Origin: Arbacia lixula
Lineage: Eukaryota; Echinodermata; Echinoidea; Arbacioida; Arbaciidae
Reading direction: 5' to 3'
Length of the DNA: 64,000 nucleotides
Assembly: GCA_963669155.1 (NCBI GenBank)
Contig: OZ022581.1
Span: 7,727,167 to 7,791,166, forward strand
Under the pieces are notes generated by a model that saw only the letters and a list, made by a program, of their open reading frames with translations, did not search any database and was not told the DNA's origin. A program made the translations under genes and the position numbers. Position 1 is the first letter of the stretch. The number at the start of each line of letters is the position of its first letter. Shown one piece after another: positions 21,145 to 58,136 of the stretch.

Positions 21145-21145
21145 G
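21025..21145. repeat. Two (GT)n microsatellites
   Basis: GT runs at about 21029-21050 and 21112-21141, separated by a spacer sharing ATAGCTCTCT with the sequence after the second run. Confidence 0.9.
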
Positions 21146-22978: not shown

Positions 22979-22993
22979 GTGTGCGTGCGTGTG

Positions 22994-23044
<51 letters not shown>

Positions 23045-23096
23045 GTGCGTGTTTGTGTGCTGCGTGTGTGCGTATGTGTGTGTGTGTGTGAGTTTG
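22979..23096. repeat. (GT)n microsatellite
   Basis: GT repeat with scattered interruptions. The CA/GT-rich frames on both strands (22825-23243) are artefacts. Confidence 0.95.
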
Positions 23097-28820: not shown

Positions 28821-29008
28821 ATATTTTAGCAATAAGTGTCTCCTTAAAGCGCCTCTACTTAGCATCCCGCGCGCGTCGCGGTATATATGCAGCAAATCAT
28901 TCGCAAGTCGTTATCAGACGAAGCGTTACAGCTAAGTTGAGCAGCTATGCCAGCTAGGTTGCTTTGATTTGTCTCCAAACGTATAGAATTAACTTTTATC
29001 TATCTCAG

Positions 29009-29140
29009 ATGGACGAAAATGGCAATGCGGAAGAGAAGAACTGGACGTCAACTTCACGAGTTTTACTATCATTTAGTATAAGCCTATTCTCTTATAGCAT
29101 CCATCCACGTACTTACATAGTCAATACACGTTTCTACTAA
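29009..29140 (+). other. Short open frame in an array core (representative)
   Basis: After an acceptor-like TTTATCTATCTCAG, an ATG opens a 43-codon frame beginning MDENGNAEEKNWTSTSRV and continuing with a short hydrophobic stretch (LLSFSISLFS) to TAA at 29138-29140. Cores of 404 spacing keep the frame (42 codons), because the 3-bp TAT indel is in frame. Cores in S modules carry GTTTAAC and stop after 18 codons (for example 32768-32824). The array is homogenised, so conservation says nothing about selection. Treat as unproven. Confidence 0.2.
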
Positions 29141-30000
29141 TAATACGGCTTATTCTTGAGAATGCTCAGTGAGACTGAAAGATACATAAAGCTGTGTGTC
29201 ATCATGATAGCAGTGACATGAGATCTCATATTTTAGCAATAAGTGTCTCCTTAAAGCGCCTCTACTTAGCATCCCGCGCGCGTCGCGGTATATATGCAGC
29301 AAAAAGTTGAGCAGCTATGCCAGCTAGCTTGCTTTGATTTGTCTCCAAACGTATAGAATTAACTTTTATCTATCTCAGATGGACGAAAATGGCAATGCGG
29401 AAGAGAAGAACTGGACGTCAACTTCACGAGTTTTACTATCATTTAGTATGAGCCTATTCTCTAGCATCCATCCACGTACTTACATAGTCAATACACGTTT
29501 CTACTAATAATACGACTTATTCTTGAGAATGCTCAGTGAGACTGAAAGATACATAAAGCTGTGTGTCATCATGATAGCAGTGACATGAGATCTCATATTT
29601 TAGCAATAAGTGTCTCCTTAAAGCGCCTCTACTTAGCATCCCGCGCACGTCGCGGTATATATGCAGCAAATCATTCGCAAGTCGTCATCAGACGAAGCGT
29701 TACAGTTAAGTTGAGCAGCTATGCCAGCTAGCTTGCTTTGATTTGTCTCCAAACGTATAGAATTAACTTCTATCTATCTCAGATGGACGAAAATGGCAAT
29801 GCGGAAGAGAAGAACTGGACGTCAACTTCACGAGTTTTACTATCATTTAGTATAAGCCTATTCTCTAACATCCATCCACGTACTTACATAGTCAATACAC
29901 GTTTCTACTAATAATACGGCTTATTCTTGAGAATGCTCAGTGAGACTGAAAGATACATAAAGCTGTGTGTCATCATCATAGCAGTGACATGAGCTCTCAG

Positions 30001-30323
30001 AAAAGCATGTTTGAACATTTGAAATGAGATCGCTAGTGTGCATTGTAAATTACATGGGACCCAATCGTGACCCTTGCGAAGCAGTTTCAGCAGTGCGGGA
30101 TCAGTGCTGTAGAATTATTGTGTGCACATTGAGTACATGGCCAAAGAGAGTTGCGTCTAAGATGTTCCATAACCTGTTGGGTAGCTGCATCCTCCACCAA
30201 CTTTGATATGTATTTCAGATTGCTTACAGGTCGTAAGTTTCCTTAAAGACTGCATCAAGAACCGGTTTCTTTCAATAACGGAGTGATAAGAGCATTTTCC
30301 CATTGCATTGGAAAGTGACCGGT

Positions 30324-30359
<36 letters not shown>

Positions 30360-30723
30360 ATCAATGATGTGAACATAAGAATGAGTACATCGATACATTA
30401 GAGGAGGAGTTTTGTGGGTATTGGGTCCAATGGTCATCAATTTTTGCTGAGGTTGGCAATGAGTTTTTCAACCTCGTACTCAGAAAGAGATTTAAAATTG
30501 CTTAACACTTTTTTTCTTCGTTGAACGTGTCAGCAGGAGGATAATTCCTAGGTTCACAAATTGGATCTAAACGTTTTTCATTATTTTATGGATTTTCAAG
30601 ACTTTGTCAGACAAGTAAGTGATTACCTAGGGCATATTGACGAATTCATGTCTATCAATAGTACATGGTATCGAAGGATGCTTATTTGACATGTTCAACA
30701 TGGACTAGACAACACTGAGCAAC
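30001..30723 (-). pseudogene. Captured CR1/L2-like LINE fragment in L module of H0
   Basis: Read on the minus strand with frame corrections: an ORF2 linker (YEVEKLIANLS, LDPIPTKLLL), MFTSLIN and SLS encoded by the (GA)n tract at 30327-30356, GHFPMQWENALITPLLK, then VSNLKYISKLVEDAATQQV, STDPALLKLL, and QGSRLGPM followed by FTMHTSDL. These are the linker and first RT motifs of CR1/L2-type LINEs. About 80 residues normally lying between the STETALL and PQGSVLGP motifs are deleted. Frameshifts and stops make it dead. It was carried along as the array amplified, and the (GA)n length differs among copies. The relic at 20594-20747 belongs to the same family. Confidence 0.75.
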
Positions 30724-31471
30724 TATTTTCTTATCATACTGGTGCACAGTAAGATATACATATATTTGCCGATACGTCTCCCTTAGACGGTATATTTTAG
30801 CAATAAGTGTCTCCTTAAAGCGCCTCTACTTAGCATCCCGCGCACGTCGCGGTATACATGCAGCAAATCATTCGCAAGTCGTCATCAGACGAAGCGTTAC
30901 AGCTAAGTTGAGCAGCTATGCCAGCTAGGTTGCTTTGATTTGTCTCCAAACGTATAGAATTAACTTTTATCTATCTCAGATGGACGAAAATGGCAATGTG
31001 GAAGAGAAGAACTGGACGTCAACTTCACGAGTTTTACTATCATTTAGTATAAGCCTATTCTCTTATAGCATCCATCCACGTACTTACATAGTCAATACAC
31101 GTTTCTACTAATAATACGGCTTATTCTTGAGAATGCTCAGTGAGACTGAAAGATACATAAAGCTGTGTGTCATCATGATAGCAGTGACATGAGATCTCAT
31201 ATTTTAGCAATAAGTGTCTCCTTAAAGCGCCTCTACTTAGCATCCCGCGCGCGTCGCGGTATATATGCAGCAAAAAGTTGAGCAGCTATGCCAGCTAGCT
31301 TGCTTTGATTTGTCTCCAAACGTATAGAATTAACTTTTATCTATCTCAGATGGACGAAAATGGCAATGCGGAAGAGAAGAACTGGACGTCAACTTCACGA
31401 GTTTAACTATCATTTAGTATAAGCCTATTCTCTAGCATCCATCCACGTACTTACATAGTCAATACATGGTC

Positions 31472-31492
31472 GATGTCATGGTCGATAGTGTC
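31472..31492 (+). repeat. Filler at S-module junction matching LINE sequence
   Basis: The 24-bp filler joining the end of one S segment to the start of the next contains a 21-bp string (31472-31492) identical to 24860-24880 inside the LINE at 23510-25028. There it encodes the DTIDHDI motif. The filler also holds the direct repeat ATGGTCGAT-GTC-ATGGTCGAT. It recurs at each S copy except the first. Confidence 0.7.
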
Positions 31493-32579
31493 GCTTTTGT
31501 TTGAGATCCGAAAGCCGAGGCGGGGATGGGGTCTATTGAAAAGATGAGAACCGGATGTTTCCCGGGTGGAACAGGTTCACGTGGCTTTCTGACGCCTTCC
31601 ATTTGGAGAAGTTAATTCTATATGTTGATTCTGTTACGAATTTAGAGGGCTAATATTGCACATACAGGAACACTGAGTATTATTGTTATTTTTACCGGGG
31701 TACCAGCGAACTCTGAGCTTATCTTGATGGGCGAGGCACGTAAACTCAAAGTAAATAACAAGTCCACTCTCGCGGTCATTGAACCCATATAGTCGGTGGG
31801 GAATCATTGCATCACTCACATGCTGTGGCGACGCGCGCGGAATGCTGAGCAGAGGTCTCCCTTGCGCGGTATATTTTAGCAATAAGTGTCTCCTTAAAGC
31901 GCCTCTACTTAGCATCCCGCGCGCGTCGCGGTATATATGCAGCAAATCATTCGCAAGTCGTTATCAGACGAAGCGTTACAGCTAAGTTGAGCAGCTATGC
32001 CAGCTAGGTTGCTTTGATTTGTCTCCAAACGTATAGAATTAACTTTTATCTATCTCAGATGGACGAAAATGGCAATGCGGAAGAGAAGAACTGGACGTCA
32101 ACTTCACGAGTTTAACTATCATTTAGTATAAGCCTATTCTCTAGCATCCATCCACGTACTTACATAGTCAATACATGGTCGATGTCATGGTCGATAGTGT
32201 CGCTTTTGTTTGAGATCCGAAAGCCGAGGCGGGGATGGGGTCTATTGAAAAGATGAGAACCGGATGTTTCCCGGGTGGAACAGGTTCACGTGGCTTTCTG
32301 ACGCCTTCCATTTGGAGAAGTTAATTCTATATGTTGATTCTGTTACGAATTTAGAGGGCTAATATTGCACATACAGGAACACTGAGTATTATTGTTATTT
32401 TTACCGGGGTACCAGCGAACTCTGAGCTTATCTTGATGGGCGAGGCACGTAAACTCAAAGTAAATAACAAGTCCACTCTCGCGGTCATTGAACCCATATA
32501 GTCGGTGGGGAATCATTGCATCACTCACATGCTGTGGCGACGCGCGCGGAATGCTGAGTAGAGGTCTCCCTTGCGCGGT

Positions 32580-32770
32580 ATATTTTAGCAATAAGTGTCT
32601 CCTTAAAGCGCCTCTACTTAGCATCCCGCGCGCGTCGCGGTATATATGCAGCAAATCATTCGCAAGTCGTTATCAGACGAAGCGTTACAGCTAAGTTGAG
32701 CAGCTATGCCAGCTAGGTTGCTTTGATTTGTCTCCAAACGTATAGAATTAACTTTTATCTATCTCAGATG
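32580..32770 (+). promoter_or_regulatory. Promoter-like core (representative of full-length cores)
   Basis: In order: TATA-like TATATTTTAG (32579), GTGTCTCC motif, a CG-rich CCCGCGCGCGTCGCGG (32625-32640), TATATAT (32641-32647), an initiator-like ATCAGACG with TCAG at 32673 (about 32 bases after the TATA start), then ACAGCTAAGTTGAG and an acceptor-like TTTATCTATCTCAG before ATG (32768). Compared with the single-copy relative, the donor position reads CTAAGT or TTAAGT instead of GTAAGT. Transcription is not shown. Confidence 0.35.
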
Positions 32771-32983
32771 GACGAAAATGGCAATGCGGAAGAGAAGAAC
32801 TGGACGTCAACTTCACGAGTTTAACTATCATTTAGTATAAGCCTATTCTCTAGCATCCATCCACGTACTTACATAGTCAATACACGTTTCTACTAATAAT
32901 ACGGCTTATTCTTGAGAATGCTCAGTGAGACTGAAAGATACATAAAGCTGTGTGTCATCATGATAGCAGTGACATGAGATCTC

Positions 32984-34486
32984 ATATTTTAGCAATAAGT
33001 GTCTCCTTAAAGCGCCTCTACTTAGCATTCCGCGCGCGTCGCGGTATATATGCAGCAAATCATTCGCAAGTCGTTATCAGACGAAGCGTTACAGCTAAGT
33101 TGAGCAGCTATGCCAGCTAGGTTGCTTTGATTTGTCTCCAAACGTATAGAATTAACTTTTATCTATCTCAGATGGACGAAAATGGCAATGCGGAAGAGAA
33201 GAACTGGACGTCAACTTCACGAGTTTTACTATCATTTAGTATAAGCCTATTCTCTTATAGCATCCATCCACGTACTTACATAGTCAATACACGTTTCTAC
33301 TAATAATACGGCTTATTCTTGAGAATGCTCAGTGAGACTGAAAGATACATAAAGCTGTGTGTCATCATGATAGCAGTGACATGAGATCTCATATTTTAGC
33401 AATAAGTGTCTCCTTAAAGCGCCTCTACTTAGCATCCCGCGCGCGTCGCGGTATATATGCAGCAAAAAGTTGAGCAGCTATGCCAGCTAGCTTGCTTTGA
33501 TTTGTCTCCAAACGTATAGAATTAACTTTTATCTATCTCAGATGGACGAAAATGGCAATGCGGAAGAGAAGAACTGGACGTCAACTTCACGAGTTTTACT
33601 ATCATTTAGTATGAGCCTATTCTCTAGCATCCATCCACGTACTTACATAGTCAATACACGTTTCTACTAATAATACGACTTATTCTTGAGAATGCTCAGT
33701 GAGACTGAAAGATACATAAAGCTGTGTGTCATCATGATAGCAGTGACATGAGATCTCATATTTTAGCAATAAGTGTCTCCTTAAAGCGCCTCTACTTAGC
33801 ATCCCGCGCGCGTCGCGGTATATATGCAGCAAATCATTCGCAAGTCGTCATCAGACGAAGCGTTACAGTTAAGTTGAGCAGCTATGCCAGCTAGCTTGCT
33901 TTGATTTGTCTCCAAACGTATAGAATTAACTTCTATCTATCTCAGATGGACGAAAATGGCAATGCGGAAGAGAAGAACTGGACGTCAACTTCACGAGTTT
34001 TACTATCATTTAGTATAAGCCTATTCTCTAACATCCATCCACGTACTTACATAGTCAATACACGTTTCTACTAATAATACGGCTTATTCTTGAGAATGCT
34101 CAGTGAGACTGAAAGATACATAAAGCTGTGTGTCATCATCATAGCAGTGACATGAGCTCTCAGAAAAGCATGTTTGAACATTTGAAATGAGATCGCTAGT
34201 GTGCATTGTAAATTACATGGGACCCAATCGTGACCCTTGCGAAGCAGTTTCAGCAGTGCGGGATCAGTGCTGTAGAATTATTGTGTGCACATTGAGTACA
34301 TGGCCAAAGAGAGTTGCGTCTAAGATGTTCCATAACCTGTTGGGTAGCTGCATCCTCCACCAACTTTGATATGTATTTCAGATTGCTTACAGGTCGTAAG
34401 TTTCCTTAAAGACTGCATCAAGAACCGGTTTCTTTCAATAACGGAGTGATAAGAGCATTTTCCCATTGCATTGGAAAGTGACCGGT

Positions 34487-34522
<36 letters not shown>

Positions 34523-37146
34523 ATCAATGATGTGAACATAAGAATGAGTACATCGATACATTAGAGGAGGAGTTTTGTGGGTATTGGGTCCAATGGTCAT
34601 CAATTTTTGCTGAGGTTGGCAATGAGTTTTTCAACCTCGTACTCAGAAAGAGATTTAAAATTGCTTAACACTTTTTTTCTTCGTTGAACGTGTCAGCAGG
34701 AGGATAATTCCTAGGTTCACAAATTGGATCTAAACGTTTTTCATTATTTTATGGATTTTCAAGACTTTGTCAGACAAGTAAGTGATTACCTAGGGCATAT
34801 TGACGAATTCATGTCTATCAATAGTACATGGTATCGAAGGATGCTTATTTGACATGTTCAACATGGACTAGACAACACTGAGCAACTATTTTCTTATCAT
34901 ACTGGTGCACAGTAAGATATACATATATTTGCCGATACGTCTCCCTTAGACGGTATATTTTAGCAATAAGTGTCTCCTTAAAGCGCCTCTACTTAGCATC
35001 CCGCGCACGTCGCGGTATATATGCAGCAAATCATTCGCAAGTCGTCATCAGACGAAGCGTTACAGCTAAGTTGAGCAGCTATGCCAGCTAGGTTGCTTTG
35101 ATTTGTCTCCAAACGTATAGAATTAACTTTTATCTATCTCAGATGGACGAAAATGGCAATGTGGAAGAGAAGAACTGGACGTCAACTTCACGAGTTTTAC
35201 TATCATTTAGTATAAGCCTATTCTCTTATAGCATCCATCCACGTACTTACATAGTCAATACACGTTTCTACTAATAATACGGCTTATTCTTGAGAATGCT
35301 CAGTGAGACTGAAAGATACATAAAGCTGTGTGTCATCATGATAGCAGTGACATGAGATCTCATATTTTAGCAATAAGTGTCTCCTTAAAGCGCCTCTACT
35401 TAGCATCCCGCGCGCGTCGCGGTATATATGCAGCAAAAAGTTGAGCAGCTATGCCAGCTAGCTTGCTTTGATTTGTCTCCAAACGTATAGAATTAACTTT
35501 TATCTATCTCAGATGGACGAAAATGGCAATGCGGAAGAGAAGAACTGGACGTCAACTTCACGAGTTTAACTATCATTTAGTATAAGCCTATTCTCTAGCA
35601 TCCATCCACGTACTTACATAGTCAATACATGGTCGATGTCATGGTCGATAGTGTCGCTTTTGTTTGAGATCCGAAAGCCGAGGCGGGGATGGGGTCTATT
35701 GAAAAGATGAGAACCGGATGTTTCCCGGGTGGAACAGGTTCACGTGGCTTTCTGACGCCTTCCATTTGGAGAAGTTAATTCTATATGTTGATTCTGTTAC
35801 GAATTTAGAGGGCTAATATTGCACATACAGGAACACTGAGTATTATTGTTATTTTTACCGGGGTACCAGCGAACTCTGAGCTTATCTTGATGGGCGAGGC
35901 ACGTAAACTCAAAGTAAATAACAAGTCCACTCTCGCGGTCATTGAACCCATATAGTCGGTGGGGAATCATTGCATCACTCACATGCTGTGGCGACGCGCG
36001 CGGAATGCTGAGCAGAGGTCTCCCTTGCGCGGTATATTTTAGCAATAAGTGTCTCCTTAAAGCGCCTCTACTTAGCATCCCGCGCGCGTCGCGGTATATA
36101 TGCAGCAAATCATTCGCAAGTCGTTATCAGACGAAGCGTTACAGCTAAGTTGAGCAGCTATGCCAGCTAGGTTGCTTTGATTTGTCTCCAAACGTATAGA
36201 ATTAACTTTTATCTATCTCAGATGGACGAAAATGGCAATGCGGAAGAGAAGAACTGGACGTCAACTTCACGAGTTTAACTATCATTTAGTATAAGCCTAT
36301 TCTCTAGCATCCATCCACGTACTTACATAGTCAATACATGGTCGATGTCATGGTCGATAGTGTCGCTTTTGTTTGAGATCCGAAAGCCGAGGCGGGGATG
36401 GGGTCTATTGAAAAGATGAGAACCGGATGTTTCCCGGGTGGAACAGGTTCACGTGGCTTTCTGACGCCTTCCATTTGGAGAAGTTAATTCTATATGTTGA
36501 TTCTGTTACGAATTTAGAGGGCTAATATTGCACATACAGGAACACTGAGTATTATTGTTATTTTTACCGGGGTACCAGCGAACTCTGAGCTTATCTTGAT
36601 GGGCGAGGCACGTAAACTCAAAGTAAATAACAAGTCCACTCTCGCGGTCATTGAACCCATATAGTCGGTGGGGAATCATTGCATCACTCACATGCTGTGG
36701 CGACGCGCGCGGAATGCTGAGTAGAGGTCTCCCTTGCGCGGTATATTTTAGCAATAAGTGTCTCCTTAAAGCGCCTCTACTTAGCATCCCGCGCGCGTCG
36801 CGGTATATATGCAGCAAATCATTCGCAAGTCGTTATCAGACGAAGCGTTACAGCTAAGTTGAGCAGCTATGCCAGCTAGGTTGCTTTGATTTGTCTCCAA
36901 ACGTATAGAATTAACTTTTATCTATCTCAGATGGACGAAAATGGCAATGCGGAAGAGAAGAACTGGACGTCAACTTCACGAGTTTTACTATCATTTAGTA
37001 TGAGCCTATTCTCTAGCATCCATCCACGTACTTACATAGTCAATACACGTTTCTACTAATAATACGACTTATTCTTGAGAATGCTCAGTGAGACTGAAAG
37101 ATACATAAAGCTGTGTGTCATCATGATAGCAGTGACATGAGATCTC
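32984..37146 (+). repeat. Higher-order unit H1, 4163 bp
   Basis: Same seven modules as H0 (407, 367, L 1197, 407, 672, 709, 404). Almost identical to H0 over its whole length. Confidence 0.9.
34164..34886 (-). pseudogene. LINE fragment in L module of H1
   Basis: Second copy of the captured antisense CR1/L2-like fragment, essentially identical to that in H0. Confidence 0.75.
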
Positions 37147-37875
37147 ATATTTTAGCAATAAGTGTCTCCTTAAAGCGCCTCTACTTAGCATCCCGCGCGC
37201 GTCGCGGTATATATGCAGCAAATCATTCGCAAGTCGTCATCAGACGAAGCGTTACAGTTAAGTTGAGCAGCTATGCCAGCTAGCTTGCTTTGATTTGTCT
37301 CCAAACGTATAGAATTAACTTCTATCTATCTCAGATGGACGAAAATGGCAATGCGGAAGAGAAGAACTGGACGTCAACTTCACGAGTTTTACTATCATTT
37401 AGTATAAGCCTATTCTCTAACATCCATCCACGTACTTACATAGTCAATACACGTTTCTACTAATAATACGGCTTATTCTTGAGAATGCTCAGTGAGACTG
37501 AAAGATACATAAAGCTGTGTGTCATCATCATAGCAGTGACATGAGCTCTCAGAAAAGCATGTTTGAACATTTGAAATGAGATCGCTAGTGTGCATTGTAA
37601 ATAACATGGGACCCAATCGTGACCCTTGCGAAGCAGTTTCAGCAGTGCGGGATCAGTGCTGTAGAATTATTGTGTGCACATTGAGTACATGGCCAAAGAG
37701 AGTTGCGTCTAAGATGTTCCATAACCTGTTGGGTAGCTGCATCCTCCACCAACTTTGATATGTATTTCAGATTGCTTACAGGTCGTAAGTTTTCTTAAAG
37801 ACTGCATCAAGAACCGGTTTCTTTCAATAACGGAGTGATAAGAGCATTTTCCCATTGCATTGGAAAGTGACCGGT

Positions 37876-37911
<36 letters not shown>

Positions 37912-40535
37912 ATCAATGATGTGAACATAAGAATGAGTACATCGATACATTAGAGGAGGAGTTTTGTGGGTATTGGGTCCAATGGTCATCAATTTTTGCT
38001 GAGGTTGGCAATGAGTTTTTCAACCTCGTACTCAGAAAGAGATTTAAAATTGCTTAACACTTTTTTTCTTCGTTGAACGTGTCAGCAGGAGGATAATTCC
38101 TAGGTTCACAAATTGGATCTAAACGTTTTTCATTATTTTATGGATTTTCAAGACTTTGTCAGACAAGTAAGTGATTACCTAGGGCATATTGACGAATTCA
38201 TGTCTATCAATAGTACATGGTATCGAAGGATGCTTATTTGACATGTTCAACATGGACTAGACAACACTGAGCAACTATTTTCTTATCATACTGGTGCACA
38301 GTAAGATATACATATATTTGCCGATACGTCTCCCTTAGACGGTATATTTTAGCAATAAGTGTCTCCTTAAAGCGCCTCTACTTAGCATCCCGCGCACGTC
38401 GCGGTATATATGCAGCAAATCATTCGCAAGTCGTCATCAGACGAAGCGTTACAGCTAAGTTGAGCAGCTATGCCAGCTAGGTTGCTTTGATTTGTCTCCA
38501 AACGTATAGAATTAACTTTTATCTATCTCAGATGGACGAAAATGGCAATGCGGAAGAGAAGAACTGGACGTCAACTTCACGAGTTTTACTATCATTTAGT
38601 ATAAGCCTATTCTCTTATAGCATCCATCCACGTACTTACATAGTCAATACACGTTTCTACTAATAATACGGCTTATTCTTGAGAATGCTCAGTGAGACTG
38701 AAAGATACATAAAGCTGTGTGTCATCATGATAGCAGTGACATGAGATCTCATATTTTAGCAATAAGTGTCTCCTTAAAGCGCCTCTACTTAGCATCCCGC
38801 GCGCGTCGCGGTATATATGCAGCAAAAAGTTGAGCAGCTATGCCAGCTAGCTTGCTTTGATTTGTCTCCAAACGTATAGAATTAACTTTTATCTATCTCA
38901 GATGGACGAAAATGGCAATGCGGAAGAGAAGAACTGGACGTCAACTTCACGAGTTTAACTATCATTTAGTATAAGCCTATTCTCTAGCATCCATCCACGT
39001 ACTTACATAGTCAATACATGGTCGATGTCATGGTCGATAGTGTCGCTTTTGTTTGAGATCCGAAAGCCGAGGCGGGGATGGGGTCTATTGAAAAGATGAG
39101 AACCGGATGTTTCCCGGGTGGAACAGGTTCACGTGGCTTTCTGACGCCTTCCATTTGGAGAAGTTAATTCTATATGTTGATTCTGTTACGAATTTAGAGG
39201 GCTAATATTGCACATACAGGAACACTGAGTATTATTGTTATTTTTACCGGGGTACCAGCGAACTCTGAGCTTATCTTGATGGGCGAGGCACGTAAACTCA
39301 AAGTAAATAACAAGTCCACTCTCGCGGTCATTGAACCCATATAGTCGGTGGGGAATCATTGCATCACTCACATGCTGTGGCGACGCGCGCGGAATGCTGA
39401 GCAGAGGTCTCCCTTGCGCGGTATATTTTAGCAATAAGTGTCTCCTTAAAGCGCCTCTACTTAGCATCCCGCGCGCGTCGCGGTATATATGCAGCAAATC
39501 ATTCGCAAGTCGTTATCAGACGAAGCGTTACAGCTAAGTTGAGCAGCTATGCCAGCTAGGTTGCTTTGATTTGTCTCCAAACGTATAGAATTAACTTTTA
39601 TCTATCTCAGATGGACGAAAATGGCAATGCGGAAGAAAAGAACTGGACGTCAACTTCACGAGTTTAACTATCATTTAGTATAAGCCTACTCTCTAGCATC
39701 CATCCACGTACTTACATAGTCAATACATGGTCGATGTCATGGTCGATAGTGTCGCTTTTGTTTGAGATCCGAAAGCCGAGGCGGGGATGGGGTCTATTAA
39801 AAAGATGAGAACCGGATGTTTCCCGGGTGGAACAGGTTCACGTGGCTTTCTGATGCCTTCCATTTGGAGAAGTTAATTCTATATGTTGATTCTGTTACGA
39901 ATTTAGAGGGCTAATATTGCACATACAGGAACACTGAGTATTATTGTTATTTTTACCGGGGTACCAGCGAACTCTGAGCTTATCTTGATGGGCGAGGCAC
40001 GTAAACTCAAAGTAAATAACAAGTCCACTCTCGCGGTCATTGAACCCATATAGTCGGTGGGGAATCATTGCATCACTCACATGCTGTGGCGACGCGCGCG
40101 GAATGCTGAGTAGAGGTCTCCCTTGCGCAGTATATTTTAGCAATAAGTGTCTCCTTAAAGCGCCTCTACTTAGCATCCCGCGCGCGTCGCGGTATATATG
40201 CAGCAAATCATTCGCAAGTCGTTATCAGACGAAGCGTTACAGCTAAGTTGAGCAGCTATGCCAGCTAGCTTGCTTTGATTTGTCTCCAAACGTATAGAAT
40301 TAACTTTTATCTATCTCAGATGGACGAAAATGGCAATGCGGAAGAGAAGAACTGGACGTCAACTTCACGAGTTTTACTATCATTTAGTATGAGCCTATTC
40401 TCTAGCATCCATCCACGTACTTACATAGTCAATACACGTTTCTACTAATAATACGACTTATTCTTGAGAATGCTCAGTGAGACTGAAAGATACATAAAGC
40501 TGTGTGTCATCATGATAGCAGTGACATGAGATCTC
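37147..40535 (+). repeat. Higher-order unit H2, 3389 bp
   Basis: Modules: L 1197, 407, 672, 709, 404. It lacks the 407+367 pair of H0/H1 (774 bp, exactly the size difference). Its second S carries the variants CTGATGCC and GCGCAGTATATT. Confidence 0.9.
37553..38275 (-). pseudogene. LINE fragment in L module of H2
   Basis: As in H0; carries GTAAATAACATGGG in place of GTAAATTACATGGG, a variant shared by all L copies to its right. Confidence 0.75.
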
Positions 40536-41258
40536 ATATTTTAGCAATAAGTGTCTCCTTAAAGCGCCTCTACTTAGCATCCCGCGCGCGTCGCGGTATA
40601 TATGCAGCAAATCATTCGCAAGTCGTCATCAGACGAAGCGTTACAGCTAAGTTGAGCAGCTATGCCAGCTAGCTTGCTTTGATTTGTCTCCAAACCTATA
40701 GAATTAACTTTTATCTATCTCAGATGGACGAAAATGGCAATGCGGAAGAGAAGAACTGGACGTCAACTTCACGAGTTTTACTATCATTTAGTATAAGCCT
40801 ATTCTCTAACATCCATCCACGTACTTACATAGTCAATACACGTTTCTACTAATACGGCTTATTCTTGAGAATGCTCAGTGAGACTGAAAGATACATAAAG
40901 CTGTGTGTCATCATCATAGCAGTGACATGAGCTCTCAGAAAAGCATGTTTGAACATTTGAAATGAGATCGCTAGTGTGCATTGTAAATAACATGGGACCC
41001 AATCGTGACCCTTGCGAAGCAGTTTCAGCAGTGCGGGATCAGTGCTGTAGAATTGTGTGCACATTGAGTACATGGCCAAAGAGAGTTGCGTCTAAGATGT
41101 TCCATAACCTGTTGGGTAGCTGCATCCTCCACCAACTTTGATATGTATTTCAGATTGCTTACAGGTCGTAAGTTTCCTTAAAGACTGCATCAAGAACCGG
41201 TTTCTTTCAATAACGGAGTGATAAGAGCATTTTCCCATTGCATTGGAAAGTGACCGGT

Positions 41259-41298
<40 letters not shown>

Positions 41299-44648: not shown

Positions 44649-44684
<36 letters not shown>

Positions 44685-46599: not shown

Positions 46600-47325
46600 A
46601 TATTTTAGCAATAAGTGTCTCCTTAAAGCGCCTCTACTTAGCATCCCGCGCGCGTCGCGGTATATATGCAGCAAATCATTCGCAAGTCGTCATCAGACGA
46701 AGCGTTACAGTTAAGTTGAGCAGCTATGCCAGCTAGCTTGCTTTGATTTGTCTCCAAACGTATAGAATTAACTTCTATCTATCTCAGATGGACGAAAATG
46801 GCAATGCGGAAGAGAAGAACTGGACGTCAACTTCACGAGTTTTACTATCATTTAGTATAAGCCTATTCTCTAACATCCATCCACGTACTTACATAGTCAA
46901 TACACGTTTCTACTAATAATACGGCTTATTCTTGAGAATGCTCAGTGAGACTGAAAGATACATAAAGCTGTGTGTCATCATCATAGCAGTTACATGAGCT
47001 CTCAGAAAAGCATGTTTGAACATTTGAAATGAGATCGCTAGTGTGCATTGTAAATAACATGGGACCCAATCGTGACCCTTGCGAAGCAGTTTCAGCAGTG
47101 CGGGATCAGTGCTGTAGAATTGTGTGCACATTGAGTACATGGCCAAAGAGAGTTGCGTCTAAGATGTTCAATAACCTGTTGGGTAGCTGCATCCTCCACC
47201 AACTTTGATATGTATTTCAGATTGCTTACAGGTCGTAAGTTTCCTTAAAGACTGCATCAAGAACCGGTTTCTTTCAATAACGGAGTGATAAGAGCATTTT
47301 CCCATTGCATTGGAAAGTGACCGGT

Positions 47326-47365
<40 letters not shown>

Positions 47366-49280
47366 ATCAATGATGTGAACATAAGAATGAGTACATCGAT
47401 ACATTAGAGGAGGAGTTTTGTGGGTATTTGGTCCAATGGTCATCAATTTTTGCTGAGGTTGGCAATGAGTTTTTCAACCTCGTACTCAGAAAGAGATTTA
47501 AAATTGCTTAACACTTTTTTTCTTCGTTGAACGTGTCAGCAGGAGGATAATTCCTAGGTTCACAAATTGGATCTAAGCGTTTTTCATTATTTTATGGATT
47601 TTCAAGACTTTGTCAGACAAGTAAGTGATTACCTAGGGCATATTGACGAATTCATGTCTATCAATAGTACATGGTATCGAAGGATGCTTATTTGACATGT
47701 TCAACATGGACTAGACAACACTGAGCAACTATTTTCTTATCATACTGGTGCACAGTAAGATATACATATATTTGCCGATACGTCTCCCTTAGACGGTATA
47801 TTTTAGCAATAAGTGTCTCCTTAAAGCGCCTCTACTTAGCATCCCGCGCACGTCGCGGTATATATGCAGCAAATCATTCGCAAGTCGTCATCAGACGAAG
47901 CGTTACAGCTAAGTTGAGCAGCTATGCCAGCTAGCTTGCTTTGATTTGTCTCCAAACGTATAGAATTAACTTTTATCTATCTCAGATGGACGAAAATGGC
48001 AATGCGGAAGAGAAGAACTGGACGTCAACTTCACGAGTTTTACTATCATTTAGTATAAGCCTATTCTCTTATAGCATCCATCCACGTACTTACATAGTCA
48101 ATACACGTTTCTACTAATAATACGGCTTATTCTTGAGAATGCTCAGTGAGACTGAAAGATACATAAAGCTGTGTGTCATCATGATAGCAGTGACATGAGA
48201 TCTCATATTTTAGCAATAAGTGTCTCCTTAAAGCGCCTCTACTTAGCATCCCGCGCGCGTCGCGGTATATATGCAGCAAAAAGTTGAGCAGCTATGCCAG
48301 CTAGCTTGCTTTGATTTGTCTCCAAACGTATAGAATTAACTTTTATCTATCTCAGATGGACGAAAATGGCAATGCGGAAGAGAAGAACTGGACGTCAACT
48401 TCACGAGTTTAACTATCATTTAGTATAAGCCTATTCTCTAGCATCCATCCACGTACTTACATAGTCAATACATGGTCGATGTCATGGTCGATAGTGTCGC
48501 TTTTGTTTGAGATCCGAAAGCCGAGGCGGGGATGGGGTCTATTGAAAAGATGAGAACCGGATGTTTCCCGGGTGGAACAGGTTCACGTGGCTTTCTGATG
48601 CCTTCCATTTTGAGAAGTTAATTCTATATGTTGATTCTGTTACGAATTTAGAGGGCTAATATTGCACATACAGGAACACTGAGTATTATTGTTATTTTTA
48701 CCGGGGTACCAGCGAACTCTGAGCTTATCTTGATGGGCGAGGCACGTAAACTCAAAGTAAATAACAAGTCCACTCTCGCGGTCATTGAACCCATATAGTC
48801 GGTGGGGAATCATTGCATCACTCACATGCTGTGGCGACGCGCGCGGAATGCTGAGTAGAGGTCTCCCTTGCGCGGTATATTTTAGCAATAAGTGTCTCCT
48901 TAAAGCGCCTCTACTTAGCATCCCGCGCGCGTCGCGGTATATATGCAGCAAATCATTCGCAAGTCGTTATCAGACGAAGCGTTACAGCTAAGTTGAGCAG
49001 CTATGCCAGCTAGCTTGCTTTGATTTGTCTCCAAACGTATAGAATTAACTTTTATCTATCTCAGATGGACGAAAATGGCAATGCGGAAGAGAAGAACTGG
49101 ACGTCAACTTCACGAGTTTTACTATCATTTAGTATGAGCCTATTCTCTAGCATCCATCCACGTACTTACATAGTCAATACACGTTTCTACTAATAATACG
49201 ACTTATTCTTGAGAATGCTCAGTGAGACTGAAAGATACATAAAGCTGTGTGTCATCATGATAGCAGTGACATGAGATCTC
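46600..49280 (+). repeat. Higher-order unit H5, 2681 bp
   Basis: Modules: L 1198, 407, 672, 404. It shares ATGTTCAATAACC and GTATTTGGTCC variants with H7 but not with H6, showing that non-adjacent units are most alike. Confidence 0.9.
47006..47729 (-). pseudogene. LINE fragment in L module of H5
   Basis: As in H0, with the H5/H7-specific variants described for the unit. Confidence 0.75.
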
Positions 49281-49991
49281 ATATTTTAGCAATAAGTGTC
49301 TCCTTAAAGCGCCTCTACTTAGCATCCCGCGCGCGTCGCGGTATATATGCAGCAAATCATTCGCAAGTCGTCATCAGACGAAGCGTTACAGTTAAGTTGA
49401 GCAGCTATGCCAGCTAGCTTGCTTTGATTTGTCTCCAAACGTATAGAATTAACTTCTATCTATCTCAGATGGACGAAAATGGCAATGCGGAAGAGAAGAA
49501 CTGGACGTCAACTTCACGAGTTTTACTATCATTTAGTATAAGCCTATTCTCTTATAGCATCCATCCACGTACTTACATAGTCAATACACGTTTCTACTAA
49601 TAATACGGCTTATTCTTGAGAATGCTCATAAAGCTGTGTGTCATCATCATAGCAGTGACATGAGCTCTCAGAAAAGCATGTTTGAACATTTGAAATGAGA
49701 TTGCTAGTGTGCATTGTAAATAACATGGGACCCAATCGTGACCCTTGCGAAGCAGTTTCAGCAGTGCGGGATCAGTGCTGTAGAATTGTGTGCACATTGA
49801 GTACATGGCCAAAGAGAGTTGCGTCTAAGATGTTCCATAACCTGTTGGGTAGCTGCATCCTCCACCAACTTTGATATGTATTTCAGATTGCTTACAGGTC
49901 GTAAGTTTCCTTAAAGACTGCATCAAGAACCGGTTTCTTTCAATAACGGAGTGATAAGAGCATTTTCCCATTGCATTGGAAAGTGACCGGT

Positions 49992-50025
<34 letters not shown>

Positions 50026-51940
50026 ATCAATGATGTGAACATAAGAATGAGTACATCGATACATTAGAGGAGGAGTTTTGTGGGTATTGGGTCCAATGGT
50101 CATCAATTTTTGCTGAGGTTGGCAATGAGTTTTTCAACCTCGTACTCAGAAAGAGATTTAAAATTGCTTAACACTTTTTTTCTTCGTTGAACGTGTCAGC
50201 AGGAGGATAATTCCTAGGTTCACAAATTGGATCTAAGCGTTTTTCATTATTTTATGGATTTTCAAGACTTTGTCAGACAAGTAAGTGATTACCTAGGGCA
50301 TATTGACGAATTCATGTCTATCAATAGTACATGGTATCGAAGGATGCTTATTTGACATGTTCAACATGGACTAGACAACACTGAGCAACTATTTTCTTAT
50401 CATACTGGTGCACAGTAAGATATACATATATTTGCCGATACGTCTCCCTTAGACGGTATATTTTAGCAATAAGTGTCTCCTTAAAGCGCCTCTACTTAGC
50501 ATCCCGCGCACGTCGCGGTATATATGCAGCAAATCATTCGCAAGTCGTCATCAGACGAAGCGTTACAGCTAAGTTGAGCAGCTATGCCAGCTAGCTTGCT
50601 TTGATTTGTCTCCAAACGTATAGAATTAACTTTTATCTATCTCAGATGGACGAAAATGGCAATGCGGAAGAGAAGAACTGGACGTCAACTTCACGAGTTT
50701 TACTATCATTTAGTATAAGCCTATTCTCTTATAGCATCCATCCACGTACTTACATAGTCAATACACGTTTCTACTAATAATACGGCTTATTCTTGAGAAT
50801 GCTCAGTGAGACTGAAAGATACATAAAGCTGTGTGTCATCATGATAGCAGTGACATGAGATCTCATATTTTAGCAATAAGTGTCTCCTTAAAGCGCCTCT
50901 ACTTAGCATCCCGCGCGCGTCGCGGTATATATGCAGCAAAAAGTTGAGCAGCTATGCCAGCTAGCTTGCTTTGATTTGTCTCCAAACGTATAGAATTAAC
51001 TTTTATCTATCTCAGATGGACGAAAATGGCAATGCGGAAGAGAAGAACTGGACGTCAACTTCACGAGTTTAACTATCATTTAGTATAAGCCTATTCTCTA
51101 GCATCCATCCACGTACTTACATAGTCAATACATGGTCGATGTCATGGTCGATAGTGTCGCTTTTGTTTGAGATCCGAAAGCCGAGGCGGGGATGGGGTCT
51201 ATTGAAAAGATGAGAACCGGATGTTTCCCGGGTGGAACAGGTTCACGTGGCTTTCTGATGCCTTCCATTTTGAGAAGTTAATTCTATATGTTGATTCTGT
51301 TACGAATTTAGAGGGCTAATATTGCACATACAGGAACACTGAGTATTATTGTTATTTTTACCGGGGTACCAGCGAACTCTGAGCTTATCTTGATGGGCGA
51401 GGCACGTAAACTCAAAGTAAATAACAAGTCCACTCTCGCGGTCATTGAACCCACATAGTCGGTGGGGAATCATTGCATCACTCACATGCTGTGGCGACGC
51501 GCGCGGAATGCTGAGTAGAGGTCTCCCTTGCGCGGTATATTTTAGCAATAAGTGTCTCCTTAAAGCGCCTCTACTTAGCATCCCGCGCGCGTCGCGGTAT
51601 ATATGCAGCAAATCATTCGCAAGTCGTTATCAGACGAAGCGTTACAGCTAAGTTGAGCAGCTATGCCAGCTAGGTTGCTTTGATTTGTCTCCAAACGTAT
51701 AGAATTAACTTTTATCTATCTCAGATGGACGAAAATGGCAATGCGGAAGAGAAGAACTGGACGTCAACTTCACGAGTTTTACTATCATTTAGTATGAGCC
51801 TATTCTCTAGCATCCATCCACGTACTTACATAGTCAATACACGTTTCTACTAATAATACGACTTATTCTTGAGAATGCTCAGTGAGACTGAAAGATACAT
51901 AAAGCTGTGTGTCATCATGATAGCAGTGACATGAGATCTC
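49281..51940 (+). repeat. Higher-order unit H6, 2660 bp
   Basis: Modules: L 1177, 407, 672, 404. The core before the LINE fragment has a small deletion removing GTGAGACTGAAAGATA, and has the TAT insertion. Confidence 0.9.
49672..50389 (-). pseudogene. LINE fragment in L module of H6
   Basis: As in H0 with a shorter (GA)n tract. Confidence 0.75.
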
Positions 51941-52666
51941 ATATTTTAGCAATAAGTGTCTCCTTAAAGCGCCTCTACTTAGCATCCCGCGCGCGTCGCG
52001 GTATATATGCAGCAAATCATTCGCAAGTCGTCATCAGACGAAGCGTTACAGTTAAGTTGAGCAGCTATGCCAGCTAGCTTGCTTTGATTTGTCTCCAAAC
52101 GTATAGAATTAACTTCTATCTATCTCAGATGGACGAAAATGGCAATGCGGAAGAGAAGAACTGGACGTCAACTTCACGAGTTTTACTATCATTTAGTATA
52201 AGCCTATTCTCTAACATCCATCCACGTACTTACATAGTCAATACACGTTTCTACTAATAATACGGCTTATTCTTGAGAATGCTCAGTGAGACTGAAAGAT
52301 ACATAAAGCTGTGTGTCATCATCATAGCAGTTACATGAGCTCTCAGAAAAGCATGTTTGAACATTTGAAATGAGATCGCTAGTGTGCATTGTAAATAACA
52401 TGGGACCCAATCGTGACCCTTGCGAAGCAGTTTCAGCAGTGCGGGATCAGTGCTGTAGAATTGTGTGCACATTGAGTACATGGCCAAAGAGAGTTGCGTC
52501 TAAGATGTTCAATAACCTGTTGGGTAGCTGCATCCTCCACCAACTTTGATATGTATTTCAGATTGCTTACAGGTCGTAAGTTTCCTTAAAGACTGCATCA
52601 AGAACCGGTTTCTTTCAATAACGGAGTGATAAGAGCATTTTCCCATTGCATTGGAAAGTGACCGGT

Positions 52667-52706
<40 letters not shown>

Positions 52707-54621
52707 ATCAATGATGTGAACATAAGAATGAGTACATCGATACATTAGAGGAGGAGTTTTGTGGGTATTTGGTCCAATGGTCATCAATTTTTGCTGAGGT
52801 TGGCAATGAGTTTTTCAACCTCGTACTCAGAAAGAGATTTAAAATTGCTTAACACTTTTTTTCTTCGTTGAACGTGTCAGCAGGAGGATAATTCCTAGGT
52901 TCACAAATTGGATCTAAGCGTTTTTCATTATTTTATGGATTTTCAAGACTTTGTCAGACAAGTAAGTGATTACCTAGGGCATATTGACGAATTCATGTCT
53001 ATCAATAGTACATGGTATCGAAGGATGCTTATTTGACATGTTCAACATGGACTAGACAACACTGAGCAACTATTTTCTTATCATACTGGTGCACAGTAAG
53101 ATATACATATATTTGCCGATACGTCTCCCTTAGACGGTATATTTTAGCAATAAGTGTCTCCTTAAAGCGCCTCTACTTAGCATCCCGCGCACGTCGCGGT
53201 ATATATGCAGCAAATCATTCGCAAGTCGTCATCAGACGAAGCGTTACAGCTAAGTTGAGCAGCTATGCCAGCTAGCTTGCTTTGATTTGTCTCCAAACGT
53301 ATAGAATTAACTTTTATCTATCTCAGATGGACGAAAATGGCAATGCGGAAGAGAAGAACTGGACGTCAACTTCACGAGTTTTACTATCATTTAGTATAAG
53401 CCTATTCTCTTATAGCATCCATCCACGTACTTACATAGTCAATACACGTTTCTACTAATAATACGGCTTATTCTTGAGAATGCTCAGTGAGACTGAAAGA
53501 TACATAAAGCTGTGTGTCATCATGATAGCAGTGACATGAGATCTCATATTTTAGCAATAAGTGTCTCCTTAAAGCGCCTCTACTTAGCATCCCGCGCGCG
53601 TCGCGGTATATATGCAGCAAAAAGTTGAGCAGCTATGCCAGCTAGCTTGCTTTGATTTGTCTCCAAACGTATAGAATTAACTTTTATCTATCTCAGATGG
53701 ACGAAAATGGCAATGCGGAAGAGAAGAACTGGACGTCAACTTCACGAGTTTAACTATCATTTAGTATAAGCCTATTCTCTAGCATCCATCCACGTACTTA
53801 CATAGTCAATACATGGTCGATGTCATGGTCGATAGTGTCGCTTTTGTTTGAGATCCGAAAGCCGAGGCGGGGATGGGGTCTATTGAAAAGATGAGAACCG
53901 GATGTTTCCCGGGTGGAACAGGTTCACGTGGCTTTCTGATGCCTTCCATTTTGAGAAGTTAATTCTATATGTTGATTCTGTTACGAATTTAGAGGGCTAA
54001 TATTGCACATACAGGAACACTGAGTATTATTGTTATTTTTACCGGGGTACCAGCGAACTCTGAGCTTATCTTGATGGGCGAGGCACGTAAACTCAAAGTA
54101 AATAACAAGTCCACTCTCGCGGTCATTGAACCCATATAGTCGGTGGGGAATCATTGCATCACTCACATGCTGTGGCGACGCGCGCGGAATGCTGAGTAGA
54201 GGTCTCCCTTGCGCGGTATATTTTAGCAATAAGTGTCTCCTTAAAGCGCCTCTACTTAGCATCCCGCGCGCGTCGCGGTATATATGCAGCAAATCATTCG
54301 CAAGTCGTTATCAGACGAAGCGTTACAGCTAAGTTGAGCAGCTATGCCAGCTAGGTTGCTTTGATTTGTCTCCAAACGTATAGAATTAACTTTTATCTAT
54401 CTCAGATGGACGAAAATGGCAATGCGGAAGAGAAGAACTGGACGTCAACTTCACGAGTTTTACTATCATTTAGTATGAGCCTATTCTCTAGCATCCATCC
54501 ACGTACTTACATAGTCAATACACGTTTCTACTAATAATACGACTTATTCTTGAGAATGCTCAGTGAGACTGAAAGATACATAAAGCTGTGTGTCATCATG
54601 ATAGCAGTGACATGAGATCTC
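51941..54621 (+). repeat. Higher-order unit H7, 2681 bp
   Basis: Modules: L 1198, 407, 672, 404. Nearly identical to H5. Confidence 0.9.
52347..53070 (-). pseudogene. LINE fragment in L module of H7
   Basis: As in H5, sharing its diagnostic variants. Confidence 0.75.
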
Positions 54622-56104
54622 ATATTTTAGCAATAAGTGTCTCCTTAAAGCGCCTCTACTTAGCATCCCGCGCGCGTCGCGGTATATATGCAGCAAATCA
54701 TTCGCAAGTCGTCATCAGACGAAGCGTTACAGTTAAGTTGAGCAGCTATGCCAGCTAGCTTGCTTTGATTTGTCTCCAAACGTATAGAATTAACTTCTAT
54801 CTATCTCAGATGGACGAAAATGGCAATGCGGAAGAGAAGAACTGGACGTCAACTTCACGAGTTTTACTATCATTTAGTATAAGCCTATTCTCTTATAGCA
54901 TCCATCCACGTACTTACATAGTCAATACACGTTTCTACTAATAATACGGCTTATTCTTGAGAATGCTCAGTGAGACTGAAAGATACATAAAGCTGTGTGT
55001 CATCATGATAGCAGTGACATGAGATCTCATATTTTAGCAATAAGTGTCTCCTTAAAGCGCCTCTACTTAGCATCCCGCGCGCGTCGCGGTATATATGCAG
55101 CAAAAAGTTGAGCAGCTATGCCAGCTAGCTTGCTTTGATTTGTCTCCAAACGTATAGAATTAACTTTTATCTATCTCAGATGGACGAAAATGGCAATGCG
55201 GAAGAGAAGAACTGGACGTCAACTTCACGAGTTTAACTATCATTTAGTATAAGCCTATTCTCTAGCATCCATCCACGTACTTACATAGTCAATACATGGT
55301 CGATGTCATGGTCGATAGTGTCGCTTTTGTTTGAGATCCGAAAGCCGAGGCGGGGATGGGGTCTATTGAAAAGATGAGAACCGGATGTTTCCCGGGTGGA
55401 ACAGGTTCACGTGGCTTTCTGATGCCTTCCATTTTGAGAAGTTAATTCTATATGTTGATTCTGTTACGAATTTAGAGGGCTAATATTGCACATACAGGAA
55501 CACTGAGTATTATTGTTATTTTTACCGGGGTACCAGCGAACTCTGAGCTTATCTTGATGGGCGAGGCACGTAAACTCAAAGTAAATAACAAGTCCACTCT
55601 CGCGGTCATTGAACCCATATAGTCGGTGGGGAATCATTGCATCACTCACATGCTGTGGCGACGCGCGCGGAATGCTGAGTAGAGGTCTCCCTTGCGCGGT
55701 ATATTTTAGCAATAAGTGTCTCCTTAAAGCGCCTCTACTTAGCATCCCGCGCGCGTCGCGGTATATATGCAGCAAATCATTCGCAAGTCGTTATCAGACG
55801 AAGCGTTACAGCTAAGTTGAGCAGCTATGCCAGCTAGGTTGCTTTGATTTGTCTCCAAACGTATAGAATTAACTTTTATCTATCTCAGATGGACGAAAAT
55901 GGCAATGCGGAAGAGAAGAACTGGACGTCAACTTCACGAGTTTTACTATCATTTAGTATGAGCCTATTCTCTAGCATCCATCCACGTACTTACATAGTCA
56001 ATACACGTTTCTACTAATAATACGACTTATTCTTGAGAATGCTCAGTGAGACTGAAAGAAACATAAAGCTGTGTGTCATCATGATAGCAGTGACATGAGA
56101 TCTC
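54622..56104 (+). repeat. Higher-order unit H8, 1483 bp
   Basis: Modules: 407, 672, 404. The L module is absent, which makes it the shortest unit. Confidence 0.9.
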
Positions 56105-56830
56105 ATATTTTAGCAATAAGTGTCTCCTTAAAGCGCCTCTACTTAGCATCCCGCGCGCGTCGCGGTATATATGCAGCAAATCATTCGCAAGTCGTCATCA
56201 GACGAAGCGTTACAGTTAAGTTGAGCAGCTATGCCAGCTAGCTTGCTTTGATTTGTCTCCAAACGTATAGAATTAACTTCTATCTATCTCAGATGGACGA
56301 AAATGGCAATGCGGAAGAGAAGAACTGGACGTCAACTTCACGAGTTTTACTATCATTTAGTATAAGCCTATTCTCTAACATCCATCCACGTACTTACATA
56401 GTCAATACACGTTTCTACTAATAATACGGCTTATTCTTGAGAATGCTCAGTGAGACTGAAAGATACATAAAGCTGTGTGTCATCATCATAGCAGTGACAT
56501 GAGCTCTCAGAAAAGCATGTTTGAACATTTGAAATGAGATCGCTAGTGTGCATTGTAAATAACATGGGACCCAATCGTGACCCTTGCGAAGCAGTTTCAG
56601 CAGTGCGGGATCAGTGCTGTAGAATTGTGTGCACATTGAGTACATGGCCAAAGAGAGTTGCGTCTAAGATGTTCCATAACCTGTTGGGTAGCTGCATCCT
56701 CCACCAACTTTGATATGTATTTCAGATTGCTTACAGGTCGTAAGTTTCCTTAAAGACTGCATCAAGAACCGGTTTCTTTCAATAACGGAGTGATAAGAGC
56801 ATTTTCCCATTGCATTGGAAAGTGACCGGT

Positions 56831-56870
<40 letters not shown>

Positions 56871-57936
56871 ATCAATGATGTGAACATAAGAATGAGTACA
56901 TCGATACATTAGAGGAGGAGTTTTGTGGGTATTGGGTCCAATGGTCATCAATTTTTGCTGAGGTTGGCAATGAGTTTTTCAACCTCGTACTCAGAAAGAG
57001 ATTTAAAATTGCTTAACACTTTTTTTCTTCGTTGAACGTGTCAGCAGGAGGATAATTCCTAGGTTCACAAATTGGATCTCAGCGTTTTTCATTATTTTAT
57101 GGATTTTCAAGACTTTGTCAGACAAGTAAGTGATTACCTAGGGCATATTGACGAATTCATGTCTATCAATAGTACATGGTATCGAAGGATGCTTATTTGA
57201 CATGTTCAACATGGACTAGACAACACTGAGCAACTATTTTCTTATCATACTGGTGCACAGTAAGATATACATATATTTGCCGATACGTCTCCCTTAGACG
57301 GTATATTTTAGCAATAAGTGTCTCCTTAAAGCGCCTCTACTTAGCATCCCGCGCACGTCGCGGTATATATGCAGCAAATCATTCGCAAGTCGTTATCAGA
57401 CGAAGCGTTACAGCTAAGTTGAGCAGCTATGCCAGCTAGCTTGCTTTGATTTGTCTCCAAACGTATAGAATTAACTTAGATTTATCTATCTCAGATGAAC
57501 GACAATGGCAATGCGGAAGAGAAGAACTGGACGTCAACTTCACGAGTTTTACTATCATTTAGTATAAGCCTATTCTCTTATAGCATCCATCCACGTACTT
57601 ACATAGTCAATACACGTTTCTACTAATAATACGGCTTATTCTTGAGAATGCTCAGTGAGACTGAAAGATACATAAAGCTGTGTGTCATCATGATAGCAGT
57701 GACATGAGATCTCATATTTTAGCAATAAGTGTCTCCTTAAAGCGCCTCTACTTAGCATCCCGCGCGCGTCGCGGTATATATGCAGCAAATCATTCGCAAG
57801 TCGTCATCAGACGAAGCGTTACAGCTAAGTTGAGCAGCTATGCCAGCTAGCTTGCTTTGATTTGTCTCCAAACGTATAGAATTAACTTCTATCTATCTCA
57901 GATGGACGAAAATGGCAATGCGGAAGAGAAGAACTG
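56105..57936 (+). repeat. Last, partial higher-order unit H9, cut by the gap
   Basis: Modules: L 1198, a 411-bp core, then a full-length core that runs into the N gap. The last cores carry private changes (AACTTAGATTTATC, ATGAACGACAATGG at about 57495), as expected near an array edge. Confidence 0.85.
56511..57234 (-). pseudogene. LINE fragment in L module of H9
   Basis: As in H0, ninth and last copy in the window, with GGATCTCAGCG at about 57075. Confidence 0.75.
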
Positions 57937-58136
57937 NNNNNNNNNNNNNNNNNNNNNNNNNNNNNNNNNNNNNNNNNNNNNNNNNNNNNNNNNNNNNNNN
58001 NNNNNNNNNNNNNNNNNNNNNNNNNNNNNNNNNNNNNNNNNNNNNNNNNNNNNNNNNNNNNNNNNNNNNNNNNNNNNNNNNNNNNNNNNNNNNNNNNNNN
58101 NNNNNNNNNNNNNNNNNNNNNNNNNNNNNNNNNNNN
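57937..58136. other. Assembly gap of exactly 200 N
   Basis: A round-number gap falls inside an array core. It is probably a placeholder of unknown true length, so the array may be longer than shown. Confidence 0.9.

What the first reader, a model, noticed from the sequence alone, without database searches (positions are those of the whole stretch)
28821..57936. Higher-order array whose unit shrinks step by step from left to right
Counting cores by one fixed landmark gives periods of 4163, 4163, 3389, 3387, 2677, 2681, 2660, 2681 and 1483 bp. The drops are whole modules: the 407+367 pair (774 bp), then one S module (about 709 bp), then the L module (1198 bp). The order of loss is directional along the array. 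That could record successive unequal exchanges growing outward, or rolling-circle or break-induced amplification from progressively deleted templates. I know of no described array with this geometry, but I cannot search.
Basis: seen in the sequence. Interest (0 to 1): 0.8.

Follow-up and report, generated by a model that had tools for sequence, protein, structure and literature searches.

The report
Giant jumping element with shuffled repeats

Summary
All nine periods check exactly, but the story does not hold. Unit 10 carries the L module again and a 200-N gap cuts the array at 57937. Measured L to L there is no significant trend; no other array with six or more periods shows one.

The array lies inside a giant dispersed element whose left end is at window 10157. 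Imperfect inverted termini (21 of 23 bp alike) occur 54 times in the genome, none in the reversed control, with 13 convergent pairs 40.4-93.2 kb apart. All 25 right ends found run into TA repeats; 19 of 20 left ends sought, plus the window and C21, abut TA-rich sequence. No transposase was found in the 25 ORFs scanned, only nested retrotransposon pieces.

Modules changed by homologous exchange inside a shared ~400-bp core; chimeric cores mark crossovers. The unit-9 L loss is a real deletion; the 774-bp pair of units 1-2 is probably a gain private to this copy. Two copies with more diverged left arms (C5, C10) have plain ~1.2-kb monomers in the stretch read.

Verdict: a giant, apparently non-autonomous, microsatellite-associated DNA transposon with an unstable internal array.

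The parts
10157..57936 (+). part of the giant element present in the window: left terminus to the assembly gap
   Evidence: left boundary by comparison with the copy on C21 and with 19 further left ends
10119..10156 (.). (AT)n microsatellite that abuts the left terminus
   Evidence: TRF; 19 further left ends abut TA-rich or (AT)n sequence
10160..10182 (+). left terminal inverted repeat, 21 of 23 bp like the right one; 29 left-type and 25 right-type matches in the genome
10175..10250 (.). subterminal motif GGAGACA / TGTCTCC, four copies here; also in the array cores
10637..10743 (+). diverged copy (about 81-91% by stretch) of the L end plus core start, promoter-like
16132..18614 (-). nested non-LTR retrotransposon pieces: RVT_1 above cut-off in 16132-16770 and 16774-17160, below cut-off in 17991-18614; in the stretch shared with C21
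   Evidence: Pfam; alignment of C6 and C21 through it
23798..25027 (-). nested reverse transcriptase fragment, 410 aa, RVT_1
28037..28416 (+). unique sequence at the left edge of the array, also in C4, C21, C234 and C19; source of the S tail
28417..32579 (+). unit 1, 4163 bp: A, B, dA, AL, B, dAS, AS
32580..36742 (+). unit 2, 4163 bp, same order
36743..40131 (+). unit 3, 3389 bp: A, AL, B, dAS, AS
40132..43518 (+). unit 4, 3387 bp, same order as unit 3
43519..54217 (+). units 5-8, 2677, 2681, 2660, 2681 bp: A, AL, B, dAS
54218..55700 (+). unit 9, 1483 bp: A, B, dAS (L lost)
54622..55028 (+). chimeric core of unit 9: front of an L module, tail of a B module; crossover scar of the L deletion
55701..57936 (+). 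unit 10, incomplete, L present again
57937..58136 (.). 200-N assembly gap; rest of array and right arm of this copy not seen

Best explanation
The array is the internal, recombining part of a giant DNA transposon with short terminal inverted repeats that lies in (AT)n microsatellites. An ancestral tandem of ~1.2-kb monomers (a ~400-bp core plus an L tail) was remodelled in a younger lineage: L was lost from some monomers (short A/B modules), and the unique sequence at the left edge was joined, through a 24-bp filler, to a core (S modules). Homologous exchange between cores then duplicated, deleted and reordered modules separately in each inserted copy. The step order in the window is one such outcome, cut by an assembly gap. 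Shown: termini and their pairing on contigs, differing arrays, chimeric cores. Inferred: cut-and-paste movement by a transposase supplied elsewhere, single origin of the S junction, and the order of events.
For: Terminal pattern (at most 1 mismatch): 54 hits, 0 in the reversed control, 29 left and 25 right, 13 convergent pairs 40.4-93.2 kb. 25 of 25 right ends followed by TA repeats. 19 of 20 sought left ends plus the window and C21 abut TA-rich or (AT)n sequence; among these 21 flanks two pairs share sequence, one of them only a 125-bp repeat. Left-arm pieces: window 26000-26900 has 27 full-length matches at 94-100% and one of 773 bp among 40 scored of 98 candidates; 12450-13350 has 29 full-length matches of 32. 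Arrays on C4, C21, C18, C162, C234, C9 and C19 hold the same kinds of modules in other orders. Preceding tail predicts the core front: mutual information 1.39 bits, at most 0.23 in 1000 shuffles, 213 cores of six arrays. Unit 9 B core = L front + B tail. Plain ~1.2-kb monomers in the parts of C5 and C10 read.
Against: No transposase in 25 Pfam-scanned ORFs of arms and array: 16 from the window (6 of the 9, 10) and 9 of the C162 right arm; many other ORFs, and all under 67 aa, were not scanned. No target-site duplication can be read in (AT)n. Two copies on C5 share a flank, so not every copy is an independent insertion. C3 gave no terminus at the place fetched, though one lies about 1.1 kb away. 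On C4 the left arm matches only from window 24076 on; the 1.8 kb beyond do not match. The shuffle test treats related cores as independent. C9 was not resolved.
Confidence: 0.8

Rival explanations
1. Directional shrinkage: units were copied by rolling circle or break-induced replication from templates that lost a module each time. (Rivals are not all mutually exclusive with the main reading.)
For: dAS is identical in units 1-4 and differs by 0-1 base among units 5-9, so that module does follow the presence of AS.
Against: L returns in unit 10. Unit 1-2 modules are the rare state and the A module of units 3-10 is the state shared with C4, C162 and C234. Other modules do not follow the runs: L of units 6 and 8 is identical but unit 7 differs by 5 bases, B is identical in units 3-5, A in units 3, 5, 8 and 9. 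dAS tails of units 5-9 match neither dAS nor AS of units 1, 2 and 4. Chimeric cores are expected from homologous exchange.
Confidence: 0.07
2. Segmental duplications carried a satellite-containing block to many chromosomes; no transposon.
For: Arms are about 96-99.6% alike over many kb; one pair of copies on C5 shares its flank.
Against: Exact, conserved ends with inverted repeats and TA repeats outside, and mostly unrelated flanks.
Confidence: 0.08
3. Assembly artefact: the module order in the window was made by mis-joined reads.
For: A 200-N gap truncates the array, and N follows the right arm of the C4 copy. Tandem arrays are hard to assemble. No reads could be inspected.
Against: The 46-kb C4 array has no N inside and also has mixed module orders; A and dAS carry variants that separate units 1-2 or 1-4 from the rest.
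Confidence: 0.15
4. An endogenous large virus with internal repeats.
For: Size range and internal repeats recall Teratorn.
Against: No viral gene family in the scanned ORFs, which are only part of the ORFs.
Confidence: 0.02

Closest known systems
Tetris (foldback DNA transposon of Drosophila virilis; PMC4079207, abstract and passages seen)
   Same: apparently non-autonomous DNA transposon with internal tandem repeats that also form longer arrays; repeats share a stretch with the terminal region
   Different: Tetris repeats are ~220 bp and lie within its inverted repeats; here modules are 367-1198 bp in one central array between short inverted repeats, and paired ends are 40-93 kb apart
MuTAnT, Micron and TAFT, TA-microsatellite-targeting plant DNA transposons (PMC4486113, abstract and passages seen)
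   Same: copies flanked by TA repeats
   Different: plant families, MuTAnT with a mudrA-like transposase in one element; here an unidentified, probably animal genome, a giant element, no transposase found
Teratorn (PMC5601938, passages seen)
   Same: giant (180 kb) DNA transposon with terminal inverted repeats in some tens of copies
   Different: Teratorn carries a piggyBac transposase and herpesvirus genes; none found here among the ORFs scanned
Giant KDZ, EnSpm and Sola-1 transposons of Ectocarpus (PMC12477816, passages seen)
   Same: giant DNA transposons with nested insertions shared among copies
   Different: [quoted passage not shown] here ends up to 93 kb apart, much of it one tandem array

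Membership tests
DNA transposon with terminal inverted repeats | inverted repeats at both ends | tested here: met
   23-bp imperfect repeats, 13 convergent pairs
DNA transposon with terminal inverted repeats | target-site duplication | tested here: inconclusive
   both sides are TA repeats, no duplication can be told apart
DNA transposon with terminal inverted repeats | transposase in some copy | tested here: inconclusive
   none in 25 scanned ORFs; the transposase-like ORFs of C162 lie in a nested 2.6-kb insert with its own 14-bp inverted repeats, absent from C18
Foldback / Tetris-like | long inverted repeats that contain tandem repeats | tested here: not met
   array is single and central; terminal repeats are short in the copies read
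Helitron | no inverted repeats; TC and CTRR ends (recalled) | tested here: not met
   inverted repeats present, ends read
Maverick/Polinton | PolB, integrase, packaging ATPase genes (recalled; partly in passages of PMC6431247) | tested here: inconclusive
   none among scanned ORFs, not exhaustive
MuTAnT/Micron type | insertion in TA microsatellites | tested here: met
   25 of 25 right ends; 19 of 20 sought left ends plus the window and C21 in TA-rich or (AT)n sequence
MuTAnT/Micron type | related transposase | not tested
   no transposase found to compare

The most novel reading that the evidence does not exclude
A giant coding-free 'mobile satellite': the array cores, which carry the same GGAGACA motif as the two ends (GGAGAC/GTCTCC at 3.9 per kb in the array against 0.1-0.5 per kb in the other stretches counted), act as a large bank of transposase-binding or promoter sites, and copies differ in how many they hold because the array is free to expand and shrink.
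Probability: 0.25. Interest if true: 0.75.

Novelty: new variant of a known kind. Interest (0 to 1): 0.58.

Why it matters
If right, some dozens of insertions of one 40-93 kb DNA element in one genome are each a separate experiment on how a tandem array evolves, from plain 1.2-kb monomers to copy-specific higher-order units with readable crossover points. That makes the link between transposons and satellite DNA, and the question of how large a DNA transposon can be, directly testable. The stepwise shrinkage itself does not need a new mechanism.

Tried and rejected
Rfam and tRNA scans gave nothing of use: 0 gathering hits, two mir-72 matches at E 4 in the 'evalue' search of 28000-33000, 0 tRNA. 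A plasmid search gave no match. Idea that the window after the gap continues the element: no match to the right arm. Idea that ORFs in the C162 right arm encode the element's transposase: rejected, they lie in a nested transposon. Organism: not identified; the protein search with the nested reverse transcriptase named no organism in the 120 rows listed of 7971; I had guessed a sea star and searched papers with that word, without support. Promoter reading of the core (TATA-like box, initiator-like site, splice-like sites, all by eye): the first 120 bp are among the least diverged between young (C6, C4, C21) and older (C5, C10) copies, 0.5% and 1.3% per 60 bp against 2.5-3.1% for the core and 4.2-5.3% for L; but some L windows are as low (1.0-1.3%), and between C6 and C19 the core is more diverged than L (2.0% against 1.1%), so this is suggestive only. 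Papers: the eight searches listed nothing that I recognised as such an element; the library holds open-licence full texts only. PMC6431247: passages seen. Other listed papers: listing only.

Full report
Observation. The nine periods reproduce exactly with the landmark 'first core after an S tail'. Modules share a core of about 400 bp. Types: A (404), B (407, with a 3-bp insertion), dA (367, lacks 37 bp), AL (about 1197), dAS (672), AS (709). Unit 10 has L again and the array is cut by a 200-N gap. L-to-L periods are 4163, 3389, 3389, 3387, 2677, 2681, 2660, 4164.

Setting. The window is part of C6 of a 607-Mb genome in 590 contigs. A 407-bp module matched 98 places, from 40 scored of 679 candidates, on C4, C6, C9, C18, C21, C162 and C234. 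Arrays there have the same kinds of modules in other orders. Kendall tau for L-to-L periods: C6 -0.40 (p 0.17, 8 periods), C4 0.02 (p 0.89, 19), C21 -0.22 (p 0.27, 14), C18 0.29 (p 0.40, 8), C162 -0.67 (p 0.33, 4), C5 0.00 (p 1.0, 5, part array); C234, C9, C19 and C10 had too few. So the falling trend is seen in one copy, by one landmark.

The giant element. Left of the array the sequence is 98.4-99.5% identical between C6, C21 and C4 (on C4 only from window 24076 on) and 98.0-99.6% in C234, with large indels. It begins at window 10157, after (AT)n. The right arm, shared by C18 and C162 at about 97% apart from a 2.6-kb nested insert and local duplications, ends in an inverted relative of the left end followed by (TA)n. 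The 23-bp terminal pattern, up to one mismatch, has 54 hits and 0 in the reversed control: 29 left type, 25 right type, 13 convergent pairs on one contig 40.4 to 93.2 kb apart, median 61.8 kb, and no shorter pair. All 25 right ends run into TA repeats, 24 with an exact match to the pattern. Of 20 places fetched for left ends, 19 showed the terminus with TA-rich or (AT)n sequence outside; the pure run next to it is 0 to 51 bp long. Of 21 left flanks compared, one pair on C5 is shared and another pair shares a 125-bp repeat. C6 has a left terminus but no right one.

Mechanism of module change. Each core's front half reflects the tail that precedes it: mutual information 1.39 bits, shuffle maximum 0.23 in 1000, 213 cores of six arrays (related cores are not independent, so this is descriptive; 264 cores of ten arrays are listed). 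Exceptions are chimeras. In unit 9 the B core has an L front and a B tail: L was deleted by exchange between two cores; the same kind of chimera stands three times in C21. The A module with tail haplotype TGGAAGTA is found in C6 units 3-10 (8), C4 (12), C162 (3) and C234 (2); an A with AAGGAGTA only in C6 units 1 and 2, besides one B in C234. So the 774-bp pair of units 1-2 is more likely gained there than lost elsewhere; this rests on rarity, not on an outgroup. For the 709-bp AS module the polarity is open: S tails of units 5-9 match neither dAS nor AS of units 1, 2 and 4, and one AS next to a dAS also stands in C4.

History. On C5 and C10, whose left arm pieces are about 97% like the window's, the 8 and 7 kb read hold core+L monomers of about 1.2 kb, with a rearranged start on C10. 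On C19 the part read is a 2707-bp unit A, AL, A, AS. The S tail is the unique sequence that borders the array on the left, joined to core position 308 through a 24-bp filler; full S modules were not seen in the parts of C5 and C10 read. This suggests monomers first, higher-order units later; each of these three arrays was sampled in part.

Genes. Pfam finds reverse transcriptase fragments in the left arm, and reverse transcriptase and endonuclease fragments below cut-off in the right arm of C162. No transposase in 25 scanned ORFs. The L tail shares stretches of 84-87% identity with that part of the right arm. The C162 copy lies beside an MFS transporter ORF.

Motif. GGAGAC/GTCTCC occurs 7 times in the first 1.2 kb and 6 times in the last 1.2 kb (C162), and 3.88 per kb in the array, against 0.09-0.51 per kb in four other stretches. 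It is part of the repeated core (251 of 255 cores with a full front carry one form of it), so the array density follows from the repeats; a binding role is conjecture.

Verdict. Ordinary as a 'shrinking array'; unusual as a giant, apparently non-autonomous element with an unstable internal array. The odds of the rivals are not exclusive of one another.

Noticed in passing
L039:4594-7208 (C162 right arm): nested 2.6-kb DNA transposon with 14-bp perfect inverted repeats and split ORFs with motifs like DFSENY and HGKGPVDG; 14 relatives without a telling name in the protein database, no convincing Pfam match
   Followed up: partly
C18 and C162 right arms, about 6.0-7.1 kb from the array: a second tandem duplication of about 565 bp; the order of such pieces differs between the two copies
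   Followed up: no
C4, C18 and C162 right arms, about 0.93-1.13 kb from the array: imperfect palindrome of about 180 bp, 77-79%
   Followed up: no
window 11662-12254 and 14685-15278: inverted pair of about 595 bp, 90% alike, inside the left arm; related pieces also at 61612-62152 outside the element
   Followed up: no
window 5017-5373: weak rhodopsin-type receptor match below cut-off, outside the element
   Followed up: no
C18 5316198 and 5325220: two copies of the left-arm piece 9 kb apart between the termini of one element
   Followed up: no
C9 5685187, C14 13782359, C22 3468948, C10 13163641, C11 21463561, C4 13601096: right termini on chromosome-size contigs without a matching left terminus nearby
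   Followed up: no
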